Shown: one piece after another, positions 3,149 through 6,968 of the stretch | How the letters are laid out: every line of letters begins with the position of its first letter | Numbering within the stretch: the stretch's first letter is position 1 | Assembly: GCA_937941455.1 (NCBI GenBank) | Contig: CALDHM010000007.1 | Span: 124,001 to 188,000 of the forward strand | DNA: 64,000 bases | DNA from: an uncultured Pirellulaceae bacterium | GTDB taxonomy: Bacteria; Planctomycetota; Planctomycetia; Pirellulales; Pirellulaceae | Reading direction: 5' to 3' | Program-made: the position numbers and the translations under genes | The notes under the pieces: generated by a model | Seen by the model: the letters and a program-made list of their open reading frames with translations, nothing else | Database searches by the model: none | What the model was told of the DNA's origin: nothing

Positions 3149-3421
3149 CGTTTGGGGAAGCGAGTTGGTTAATGCAACTAGCGTAAAATGTCCACAGCCC
3201 CATTGACAACGCACTCGCCTGCTCGTGAATTGGAGAACGTCCAAGTTGGCGTGGCACGTCGGAATCCGACGCTGCGAACTGGCAAACCCGCCAGACAACG
3301 GGGAACGGATCGATTTGTCGTTAGGTAGCCTGTGTCCGAGAATCCTATCGTGTCCAGCATGAGCGCGATTAAGCGCTTCATTGCGTAGAAGTTTTGGATA
3401 CCTTTAGCTGAGAGGATGCCG

Positions 3422-4372
3422 ATGTCCCAACGTTTTGGTCCTTGCTCGACGTTGATTTATTCCCCGGGGACCAAAGTCGTTTCGCTCAAGCAGGTGTTGG
3501 GGGCTGGGGGAAAAACCGTTCATCCGGCTGGGGCCGTGGGCGTTGTGGTCTGCGCACCGTTAGATCGCGAACACGACTATCGTGTGCGGTTCATCGATGG
3601 ATTCGAGGCGTTATTGCATCACGACCAGCTCGCCCTGTTAGCGGCCTACAAATCGGCCAGCGCGGTTAATGAACCCACCGGAGTTTTTCCTGAACGATTG
3701 TCGAATCGCATCATTTACAGGTGCGTTGTCGGCTCGCGGGCCTTCGGATTGGCGACGGACGATTCGGATACCGATCGCCGCGGAATCTATTTGCCTTCGG
3801 CCGACGAGCACTGGTCCTTGTATGGCGTGCCACAACAGTTGGAATTCGAGGCGACGCAAGAGGCCTACTGGGAGTTGCAAAAATTCTTAGTGATGGCTCT
3901 CAAGGCCAATCCCAATGTGTTGGAATGTCTGTACTCGCCAATTGTCGAGTTGGCCACACCGTTAGCCCGAGAGTTGTTGGAAATCCGCGGCGCGTTTTTA
4001 TCAAAGATCGTGTACCAAACGTACAACGGCTATGTGCTTTCACAGTTCAAACGCATGCAAGTCGAATGGAAAAATCGGGGGCGAATCAAAGCAAAACACG
4101 TTATGCACTTGATCCGCTTGTTGCTTGCGGGAATCAAGGTCCTTTGCGAGGGAGTCGTACCGGTCGACGTTGGTGAACATCGTGACGCATTGTTGGCCAT
4201 CAAACGAAATGAAATGCCCTGGTCGGAGATTGAATCGTGGAGGCAATCGCTGCACGAGCAATTTCGTCTTGCCTACGAGAGTAGCGTCTTACCCGAACGC
4301 CCCGACTACGATCTCGCCAACCAGTTTTTAATTCGCGCCCGTCGTTTGGCCGTCGAGAATCACCTTCCATGA
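3422..4372 (+). CDS. Nucleotidyltransferase of the RlaP / COG3541 type, first of a tandem pair
   Basis: The ATG at 3422 sits six bases after GAGAGG; the ATG at 3416 directly abuts that site and is less likely. The 316-residue protein starts with a small beta-rich module of about 70 residues (SH3-like in pattern). The DNA polymerase beta-type nucleotidyltransferase core follows: GSRAFGLATDDSDTDRRG contains the G-S and D-x-D metal-binding motif. KFLVMALKANPNVLECLYSP is typical of the family Pfam calls RlaP, linked in other bacteria to RNA repair. The stop overlaps the start of the next gene by four bases (ATGA), so the two are translated together. The third catalytic carboxylate is not obvious, Glu/Gln residues standing where the partner has Asp. 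Confidence 0.8.
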   Translation: MSQRFGPCSTLIYSPGTKVVSLKQVLGAGGKTVHPAGAVGVVVCAPLDREHDYRVRFIDGFEALLHHDQLALLAAYKSASAVNEPTGVFPERLSNRIIYRCVVGSRAFGLATDDSDTDRRGIYLPSADEHWSLYGVPQQLEFEATQEAYWELQKFLVMALKANPNVLECLYSPIVELATPLARELLEIRGAFLSKIVYQTYNGYVLSQFKRMQVEWKNRGRIKAKHVMHLIRLLLAGIKVLCEGVVPVDVGEHRDALLAIKRNEMPWSEIESWRQSLHEQFRLAYESSVLPERPDYDLANQFLIRARRLAVENHLP

Positions 4373-5133
4373 ATCGCACACGGATCGACTACTCGATATT
4401 GCGGCAACAGATTGCCGTTCATCCGTATTCCCTGGTTTTCGCAACTGTGAGCGGTGCTCATTTGTATGGTTTTCCCTCGCCCGATTCGGATTTCGACTTG
4501 CGGGGTGCACATATCCTACCGCTGCCGCAGGTGATCGGGCTCGATAGTCGCGATGAAACGGTCGAAAAATCAGCAATCCACGAAGGGTTAGAAATCGATT
4601 TGGTCACCCACGACATCAAGAAATTCATCAGCCTGCTGCTGAAAAACAACGGCTATGTTCTCGAGCAACTCACGTCTCCCCTCGTTGTCCAAACCTCGAC
4701 TGCACACGAAGAACTTAAATCGCTCGTGCCGGGTTGCCTGACACGTTATCACGCCCACCACTATATCGGGTTTGCCGAAACTCAATGGAAACTTTTCAAG
4801 AAAGAGAAACCGCCGCGAGCCAAGCCGCTACTCTACGTCTACCGAGTATTGTTGACGGGCATTCATTTGATGCGCAGCGGGCAAATCAACGCCAATCTGA
4901 TCGAACTCAATAGCGAAGAACGATTGCCCTACATCGACGATCTCGTGACCAGAAAAATGACTAGCAGCGAACATGGTCTCCTTGATTCCCACGATTTGAC
5001 CTTCCATGAACGCGAGTATTTGAGATTGCTCGACAAGTTGCGTAAGGCAGCGAGTGAATCGCAATTGCCGGACGCTCCGACGGCCAAGCCGGCGCTCCAT
5101 GATCTGCTCGTCCGGATTCGTTTACAAACCTGA
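4369..5133 (+). CDS. Nucleotidyltransferase of the RlaP / COG3541 type, second of a tandem pair
   Basis: The 254-residue protein is a paralogue of the upstream product but lacks its N-terminal beta module. The active-site segment is VSGAHLYGFPSPDSDFDLRG, with the D-x-D pair, and EIDLVTHDIKKF probably supplies the third acidic residue. KNNGYVLEQLTSP matches the helical signature shared with the first gene. The family transfers nucleotides to an acceptor, which in studied relatives is probably RNA; the acceptor here is unknown. No ligase, kinase or methyltransferase of RNA repair lies beside the pair. The ATGA overlap and paralogy suggest a heteromeric or sequentially acting pair, which is inference. 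Confidence 0.8.
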   Translation: MNRTRIDYSILRQQIAVHPYSLVFATVSGAHLYGFPSPDSDFDLRGAHILPLPQVIGLDSRDETVEKSAIHEGLEIDLVTHDIKKFISLLLKNNGYVLEQLTSPLVVQTSTAHEELKSLVPGCLTRYHAHHYIGFAETQWKLFKKEKPPRAKPLLYVYRVLLTGIHLMRSGQINANLIELNSEERLPYIDDLVTRKMTSSEHGLLDSHDLTFHEREYLRLLDKLRKAASESQLPDAPTAKPALHDLLVRIRLQT

Positions 5134-6419: not shown

Positions 6420-6968
6420 TCAATCCGCTTCCTCTTGGGCGACCACGGCCAGCAAAGCGTCGATCTTCGGACGATCGTGGGGACCAAGACTGCGATAGAG
6501 ATACCGTATCTTGCCACTCGGATCGATCAGTACGTCACCACCAAGTTGCTGAACGTCGGCCCCGGGTATGCCCGGTAGAATTCCGCGAAAAATCAACACC
6601 AAGTACTTCCAAATGGCGCTCGGCTTGAGCAGTTCCCACCAAGTTGCCTGCGTCATTCCATAGCCCTGATAAAGTTTCCGCTCGGGATCAAGGAGCAATG
6701 GCCACGGCAGCTTCGAATCGGCGGCATACCTTTCGGCTAACCATTTCGCATCGAAGGTAATGATCAAGACCCGAATATTGAGTCGTTCCAAATCTTGTTT
6801 TCGGCGTTGCAACTGCAACACGTGCTCGCGGCAAGGCGGTCAGCCTAAATGCCGATGGAACACCAGCAATTGCCATCGCCCCAAGCCATCTTCCGCTCGA
6901 TGGGTCTCTCCATGAATATCGAGCAGTTCAAATTTCAGCATGGGCGAACCGGGTTTGAGAGCAGTCAT
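6420..6968 (-). CDS. Peroxiredoxin-like (AhpC/TSA_2) protein with in-frame UGA, candidate selenoprotein
   Basis: Translation from the ATG at 6968 gives 42 codons, a UGA at 6842-6840, then an open frame to 6420, 182 residues in all. On both sides of the UGA the protein continues as one thioredoxin-fold peroxiredoxin of the PRXL2/AhpC-TSA_2 type: WQLLVFHRHLG-U-PPCREHVLQL. Members of that family normally have Cys-x-x-Cys here (for example GCPFC), so UGA stands exactly where the redox-active Cys is expected and gives U-P-P-C. A hairpin of the bacterial SECIS type begins 18 bases after the UGA. The rest of the frame is intact, with LLIDPSGK-like and WPLLLDPERKLYQGYG segments. The probable role is thiol-dependent peroxide or disulfide chemistry. 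A simple nonsense mutation of a Cys codon is the alternative. Automatic annotation would probably start this gene at 6821 and lose the active site. Confidence 0.75.
6804..6821 (-). promoter_or_regulatory. Candidate bacterial SECIS hairpin
   Basis: On the minus strand GTGTTGC (6821-6815) pairs with GCAACGC (6810-6804) through seven pairs including one G-U. The loop is AGTT, with a G at its second position. The stem starts 18 bases and the loop 25 bases after the UGA codon at 6842-6840. This spacing and a small loop with an early G agree with the published consensus for bacterial selenocysteine insertion elements. SelA, SelB and tRNA-Sec genes are not in this window. Confidence 0.6.

What the first reader, a model, noticed from the sequence alone, without database searches (positions are those of the whole stretch)
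6420..6968. Candidate selenoprotein: peroxiredoxin-like enzyme with UGA in place of the active-site Cys
One frame runs through a UGA at codon 43, placed exactly where AhpC/TSA_2-type proteins have the first Cys of C-x-x-C (here U-P-P-C). Both sides are well conserved and otherwise undamaged. A seven-pair hairpin with loop AGTT begins 18 bases after the UGA, in the position and form of a bacterial SECIS. Standard gene callers would truncate the gene and lose the active site. If real, the organism decodes selenocysteine.
Basis: partly seen in the sequence, partly recalled or inferred. Interest (0 to 1): 0.85.

Follow-up and report, generated by a model that had tools for sequence, protein, structure and literature searches.

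The report
Selenocysteine redox enzyme in a planctomycete
The gene contains a stop codon that the bacterium almost certainly reads as selenocysteine, giving a peroxiredoxin-like enzyme of a known family; it is a clean, well-supported member that gene finders would cut in half, not a new kind of system.

Summary
The finding is right. The minus-strand frame 6968-6420 is interrupted only by UGA at codon 43 (6842-6840), in U-P-P-C. A perfect 7-pair hairpin with loop AGUU starts 18 nt later; of 1,941 TGA triplets in the window no other has such a hairpin at that spacing. The genome has SelA, SelB, SelD (with its own in-frame UGA) and tRNA-Sec with anticodon UCA. In 124 distinct homologues this codon is TGA (81) or Cys (43), nothing else. 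In the 62 closest TGA genes the hairpin is kept with compensatory changes; 0 of 43 Cys genes has a SECIS-like hairpin of 6 or more pairs. tRNA-Sec is found in 40 of 41 genomes with a UGA form and 4 of 37 with Cys forms only. Purifying selection continues after the UGA. The protein passes the curated cut-off of NCBIfam NF040769, SelL-related redox protein; it has a peroxiredoxin fold but not the Prx TxxC motif. It is a genuine selenoprotein of a known kind, probably a Sec/Cys disulfide or peroxide reductase. Sec insertion was not observed directly; the substrate is unknown.

The parts
6420..6968 (-). Selenoprotein gene, 182 codons including Sec, SelL-related Prx-like redox protein; ATG at 6968-6966, terminal stop TGA at 6422-6420
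   Evidence: NF040769 169.8 bits (cut-off 120); PF00578 64.6 bits and PF13911 57.6 bits
6840..6842 (-). UGA codon 43, read as selenocysteine; first residue of U-P-P-C
   Evidence: same column is TGA in 81 and TGC/TGT in 43 of 124 distinct homologues
6831..6833 (-). Codon 46, Cys, second residue of UxxC (presumed resolving residue)
   Evidence: Cys in 41 of 41 members of alignment A3, where UGA is written as Cys; one of them, L166, has UGA here
6804..6821 (-). SECIS hairpin, 7 bp stem (6821-6815 with 6810-6804), loop AGTT (6814-6811)

Best explanation
The gene encodes a selenoprotein. SelB, carrying Sec-tRNA-Sec (UCA), binds the AGUU hairpin just downstream of UGA codon 43 and inserts selenocysteine there instead of terminating. 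The product is a 182-residue, single-domain protein of peroxiredoxin fold with a Sec-x-x-Cys redox pair just before and at the start of the helix 44-55. Inferred chemistry: the Sec43 selenolate attacks a peroxide or a disulfide, Cys46 resolves it as a selenenylsulfide, and thioredoxin or a similar donor regenerates the enzyme. Shown by computation: the frame, the UGA column, the covarying hairpin, the full decoding machinery, purifying selection after the UGA, and a confident predicted fold. Inferred: Sec insertion itself (no mass spectrometry), the substrate, and the electron donor.
For: Machinery in the same genome: SelA 475.7 bits over 1-366 of 367, SelB 334.8 bits over 2-577 of 581, tRNA-Sec 70.7 bits with anticodon tca, SelD 364 bits with one in-frame TGA. 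Column: TGA 81, TGC 24, TGT 19 of 124 distinct homologues. Hairpin: in the 62 TGA genes scoring 160 bits or more, 62 of 62 have 5-7 of 7 pairs (41 have all 7) and 61 of 62 have loop AGTT; stem pairs 1 and 4 each occur as six pair types. On 10 sequences 94.3% of cells are paired and 0 of 500 shuffles reach the covariation score. RNA-level constraint: the Leu at +30 is TTG in 61 of 61, against 23% TTG elsewhere in these genes; synonymous recoding gives 4.3 pairs on average against 6.6 observed. Cys genes: 0 of 43 have 5 or more pairs at +18, and 0 of 43 have any SECIS-like hairpin of 6 or more pairs (1 has 5). The one Cys gene among those scoring 120 bits or more (L164, Acidobacteria) has 3 pairs and loop ATCT. 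Genomes: tRNA-Sec of 60 bits or more in 40 of 41 with a UGA form and 4 of 37 with Cys forms only. Selection: in six pairs of relatives pN/pS is 0.27-0.30 after the UGA and 0.09-0.31 before it (from the values). Fold: pLDDT 91.3; the best-ranked solved structures are peroxiredoxins and human PGFS.
Against: No protein-level evidence. The window genome is a draft of 77 contigs, 96% complete. One genome, G685, has a UGA form but neither tRNA-Sec nor SelA at threshold (91% complete); four more have tRNA-Sec but no SelA of 400 bits or more (G006, G449, G702, G732). These may be assembly gaps, which is not shown; the tRNA searches used stricter filters that lose weak matches. Related genomes are not independent, so the Fisher value of 1.9e-16 overstates the case. 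Stem pair 1 is unpaired in 13 of 62, and a strict search that stops at the first unpaired position finds a stem of 6 or more in 53 of the 62, not all. The fold does not say whether the substrate is a peroxide or a disulfide. No conserved gene neighbourhood was found.
Confidence: 0.97

Rival explanations
1. Pseudogene or sequencing error: a nonsense mutation (or base-call error) turned the active-site Cys codon into TGA.
For: Only that a single substitution separates TGA from TGC/TGT and that the genome is a draft assembly of 77 contigs.
Against: The same codon is TGA in 81 of 124 distinct homologues from many genera, with no other stop in the aligned stretch apart from one second UGA at the partner position in L166. 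Purifying selection continues downstream. The hairpin covaries and the decoding machinery is present.
Confidence: 0.01
2. Global reassignment of UGA as a sense codon (for example Trp), as in genetic code 4.
For: The frame is open if TGA is read as a residue.
Against: The next stop of the frame, close to where the homologues' frames also end, is itself TGA. The homologous residue is Cys, never Trp. The genome encodes tRNA-Sec and SelA/B/D.
Confidence: 0.005
3. The UGA serves as a selenium-dependent regulatory stop: under low selenium a 42-residue product is made and the full enzyme appears only when selenium is plentiful, so that truncation is itself the function.
For: In any Sec gene termination competes with insertion (established knowledge, recalled; no call).
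Against: Nothing specific: the first 42 codons are under purifying selection like the rest, and the hairpin fits the ordinary bSECIS model.
Confidence: 0.03

Closest known systems
NCBIfam NF040769 SelL-related redox protein
   Same: 169.8 bits against a curated cut-off of 120; all 41 members of alignment A3 match the model at E <= 0.001.
   Different: Nothing tested separates it; the model's own documentation was not available here.
Prx-like thiol:disulfide oxidoreductase, PF00578, UxxC/UxxU (listed in PMC13188914 Table 1 and PMC9312934; passages seen)
   Same: PF00578 match, UxxC motif, Sec in the first position; one relative, L166, is UxxU.
   Different: Whether the listed representative (WP_010940744.1) falls in the same subfamily was not tested.
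ULPU-containing selenoprotein (Peng et al. 2016, PMC5029168; one table row seen)
   Same: L166 in this subfamily has exactly U-L-P-U, and U-L-P-C is common in it.
   Different: No sequence was seen in the passages; that the families are the same is a guess. The window gene is U-P-P-C.
Human prostamide/PGF synthase (9usa) and peroxiredoxins such as Bcp (3drn, 3hjp)
   Same: Same predicted fold: 9usa Z 20.1, 2.2 A over 158 residues; 3hjp Z 20.9, 2.4 A over 156. The 9usa title names a C44/C47 pair, the same spacing as U43/C46.
   Different: 18-22% identity for these three; canonical Prx proteins have T three residues before the catalytic Cys (recalled), this subfamily has His in 40 of 41. Whether C44 of 9usa superposes on residue 43 was not checked residue by residue.
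Selenoprotein L (SelL) of aquatic eukaryotes
   Same: A Prx-like protein (PMC2398784, passage seen).
   Different: SelL is defined by UxxU (recalled); the window gene is UxxC. No SelL sequence was compared.

Membership tests
Bacterial selenoprotein | In-frame UGA at a redox position that is Cys in homologues | tested here: met
   TGA 81, Cys 43, other 0 of 124 distinct homologues
Bacterial selenoprotein | bSECIS hairpin: 4-16 bp stem, 3-9 nt loop, G in the first two loop positions, 16-37 nt from UGA, MFE at most -7.5 | tested here: met
   7 bp, AGUU, 25 nt, -8.4 kcal/mol; constraints from PMC13188914 Fig. 2 legend; covariation. bSECISearch itself was not run
Bacterial selenoprotein | SelA, SelB, SelD and tRNA-Sec in the same genome | tested here: met
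Bacterial selenoprotein | Selenium present in the protein at that residue | not testable with these tools
   needs 75Se labelling or mass spectrometry
NF040769 SelL-related redox protein | Score above the curated cut-off of 120 bits | tested here: met
   169.8 bits
Canonical peroxiredoxin | Thr (or Ser) three residues before the peroxidatic Cys (PxxxTxxC; recalled) | tested here: not met
   His at that position in 40 of 41 members of A3, the window protein included, Tyr in 1
Canonical peroxiredoxin | Peroxiredoxin fold | tested here: met
   AlphaFold2 model, pLDDT 91.3; 3hjp Z 20.9. ResA-type thioredoxin-fold chains are also in Foldseek's top 50
Selenoprotein L proper | UxxU diselenide motif (recalled) | tested here: not met
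   window gene is U-P-P-C; only L166 among the genes examined has a second in-frame UGA in the aligned stretch

The most novel reading that the evidence does not exclude
The gene belongs to a nearly Sec-obligate subfamily: 66 of 67 distinct genes scoring 120 bits or more have UGA. It is found in Planctomycetota and, by record titles, in Acidobacteria, Myxococcota, Rokuibacteriota, Hydrogenedentota, Akkermansiaceae, Dehalococcoidia, Bacillota, Solirubrobacteraceae and Acidimicrobiales, mostly MAGs. Its SECIS loop at +18 is AGUU in 63 of the 66, while 11 of 15 Sec genes of the sister branches (under 120 bits) have a different hairpin as their best one (loop GGUC[G/A] or GU[U/C], 20-21 nt from the UGA). 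One protein family would thus carry two SECIS designs, and the chemistry of the main subfamily would scarcely tolerate Cys.
Probability: 0.45. Interest if true: 0.45.

Novelty: new member of a known kind. Interest (0 to 1): 0.36.

Why it matters
It is a clean example of a gene that ordinary ORF calling cuts in half and strips of its active site. It also gives a well-populated family in Planctomycetota where Sec and Cys forms, and two SECIS designs, can be compared side by side with the presence of the decoding machinery, which is useful for training selenoprotein finders and for asking when Sec can be replaced by Cys. The mechanism itself is textbook.

Tried and rejected
Pseudogene, sequencing error and global UGA reassignment were considered and rejected (see rivals). 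Gene neighbourhood: clustering ORFs within 4 kb of 56 related loci plus the window gave no gene shared widely; the largest clusters cover 8 of 57 loci, and of the 14 clusters printed only the last (2 loci) holds the window. A first scan of genome contigs with the single protein found no relative; the scan with alignment A2 found 59 loci. Literature: listings for selenoprotein with SelL, UxxU, NF040769, planctomycete, Pirellula, deep-Sep and ULPU (one search listed 20 of 344 papers, 15 of 29) showed no paper on this subfamily in Planctomycetota in the held library; that is a limited search, not proof that none exists. The closest are family tables in reviews and PMC4807772, which reports Sec machinery and selenoproteins in Planctomycetes from Porphyra (passages seen; its supplementary table of selenoproteins was not looked at, as no supplement look-ups were allowed). 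Passages were sought in PMC12013277 and none matched. Haft and Tolstoy 2025 is not held. In the structure comparisons the 50 VIA rows shown name mostly peroxiredoxins and related peroxidases, with PGFS second, while Foldseek's top 50 also hold ResA and other thioredoxin-fold disulfide oxidoreductases, so the fold does not decide between peroxide and disulfide chemistry. Rfam gave no match at gathering score on L028, the locus with the gene.

Rows dropped before counts: hits below the family cut-off that were fetched as L046-L052 were not carried into (in one search L049 and L052 have a residue other than a stop at this column and a TGA elsewhere, L046 and L047 gave no tblastn hit, L048, L050 and L051 have Cys), and further weak hits were not fetched. 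Loci known to repeat a gene already held (L059, L068, L084-L088, L095) were left out. Remaining rows with identical 63 nt were merged (142 to 124). Three of 59 loci do not cover the UGA column. In the genome table the Cys-only group of the first set holds the 8 genomes with a match over the family cut-off and no UGA form, and genomes with both forms count as UGA genomes. Of the second set of 59, G638, G717 and G763 were taken's 'none' in the stop column without fetching the gene.

Full report
What is there. The minus-strand frame 6968-6420 has 182 codons with one internal TGA at codon 43 and a terminal TGA. Read as Sec, it gives ...HRHLGUPPCREH.... The part downstream of the UGA is the only piece that a standard ORF listing returns (133 aa, GTG start). 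Pfam finds AhpC-TSA and AhpC-TSA_2; NCBIfam names it SelL-related redox protein, 169.8 bits against a cut-off of 120. The window lies in a draft genome of 4.04 Mb, 77 contigs, 96% complete. The nearest named relative (L124, 67% identical) is titled Pirellulaceae, so the host is very probably a planctomycete.

Decoding machinery. SelA (475.7 bits), SelB (334.8 bits, 2-577 of 581, no stop; sequence), tRNA-Sec (70.7 bits; anticodon tca by ARAGORN) and SelD (364 bits with one in-frame TGA) are all present.

The UGA column. Homologues were gathered from 60 relatives with NF040769 (19 of 60 over the cut-off), from 392 genomes of the phylum (25 with a match at 1e-20) and 396 of the order (52 with a match) with a profile of ten UGA forms (A2), and from a public genome collection (59 loci). 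142 rows cover the column, 124 distinct over 63 nt. The codon is TGA in 81, TGC in 24, TGT in 19, and nothing else. Among the 67 that score 120 bits or more, 66 are TGA. The profile was built from UGA forms, which favours their close relatives; at the column itself it favours Cys if anything, since the TGA rows of A2 are written as Cys while the TGA of searched genes was masked.

The hairpin. In the 62 TGA genes of the closest group (160 bits or more), 5-7 of 7 pairs form at +18 in all, all 7 in 41, and 61 of 62 have loop AGTT. Pair 1 and pair 4 each occur as six different pair types; pair 1 is unpaired in 13 of 62 and pair 3 in 5. On the first ten sequences 94.3% of cells pair, 15 cells have changes on both sides (shuffled mean 5.2), and no shuffle of 500 reaches the covariation score, while the number of pairs with a change on both sides (4) is reached by 146 of 500 shuffles; sliding the partner destroys the pattern. 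The conservation is not a by-product of the protein: Leu at +30 is TTG in 61 of 61 (the 62nd gene has Val) although TTG is 23% of Leu codons elsewhere in these genes, and synonymous recoding keeps 4.3 pairs instead of 6.6. The codon at +24 ends in G in 61 of 62, whichever of six amino acids it encodes. In the 43 Cys genes no hairpin of 5 or more pairs is found at +18, and a free search over the bSECIS spacing range finds a stem of 6 or more in 0 of 43 and of 5 in 1. The one Cys gene among those over 120 bits, L164 from an Acidobacteria MAG, lacks it (3 pairs, loop ATCT). The 19 more distant UGA genes (under 160 bits) have a SECIS-like stem of 6 or more pairs in 17 cases; 12 of 19 have as their best one a GGUC[G/A] or GU[U/C] loop 20-21 nt after the UGA, and 4 have AGUU at 25 nt. 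Against this: the same strict search, which stops at the first unpaired position, finds a stem of 6 or more in only 53 of the 62 main-group genes.

Genomes. tRNA-Sec of 60 bits or more is found in 40 of 41 genomes with a UGA form and 4 of 37 with Cys forms only; SelA of 400 bits or more in 36 of 41 and 5 of 37 (tabulated). The exception for tRNA-Sec is G685; its congeners G006, G641, G738 and G749 do have tRNA-Sec. Related genomes are not independent, so the significance is overstated.

Selection and evolution. For six pairs of relatives pN is well below pS both before and after the UGA (window gene against L030: 0.133/0.632 before, 0.227/0.755 after; ratios over the six pairs 0.09-0.31 before and 0.27-0.30 after). 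So constraint after the UGA is real, in most pairs slightly weaker than before it. A quick tree of the 124 proteins needs at least 5 Sec/Cys changes, against 35.6 for shuffled labels; only 35 of 121 inner branches are well supported.

Fold and likely work. The AlphaFold2 model (41 sequences, pLDDT 91.3, pTM 0.89) puts residue 43 just before the helix 44-55. The best-ranked solved structures by VIA are Bcp-type and other peroxiredoxins and human prostamide/PGF synthase, whose title names a C44/C47 pair; Foldseek's top 50 also include ResA-type disulfide oxidoreductases. The subfamily has His, not Thr, at -3 from the Sec (40 of 41), so it fails the canonical Prx motif (recalled); the UxxC pair is invariant in A3 with UGA written as Cys, and 28 of 41 aligned stretches have no other Cys. 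The most likely mechanism is Sec43 attack on a peroxide or disulfide with resolution by Cys46. Substrate and donor are inference; no conserved neighbours were found.

What is known. bSECIS rules and family tables were seen as passages in PMC13188914, PMC9312934, PMC2398784, PMC1794560 and PMC5029168. They list Prx-like selenoproteins, with UxxC or UxxU where a motif is given, and a ULPU-containing selenoprotein; Sec use in Planctomycetes is in print (PMC4807772, passages). Filing: new member of a known kind.

Noticed in passing
L166:4001-4486 (Planctomycetaceae MAG NP87): A member of the subfamily has a second UGA at the partner position, giving U-L-P-U, the diselenide-type motif recalled for SelL and named in the 'ULPU-containing selenoprotein'.
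   Followed up: partly
L164 (Acidobacteria MAG SJ70): The only Cys form among the 67 genes over 120 bits; it has no hairpin, and it lies 35 nt from an ORF that looks like an FAD/NAD disulfide oxidoreductase (by eye), of a cluster seen in 3 of 57 loci: a possible electron donor.
   Followed up: partly
L019 (G000:C73:15254-16189): SelD of the same genome has an in-frame UGA, so it is probably itself a selenoprotein, with a different downstream hairpin.
   Followed up: partly
L039, L053, L109-L117: Sister Sec branches carry a different SECIS-like hairpin (loop GGUC[G/A] or GU[U/C] 20-21 nt after the UGA) from the AGUU type at 25 nt.
   Followed up: partly
G685 (L114): A genome with a UGA form and a SECIS-like hairpin but no tRNA-Sec or SelA found at threshold; four congeners have tRNA-Sec.
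   Followed up: no
window 3416-5133, + strand: Two adjacent, slightly overlapping ORFs (318 and 254 aa) look like paired nucleotidyltransferase-type proteins (recalled motif, not searched).
   Followed up: no
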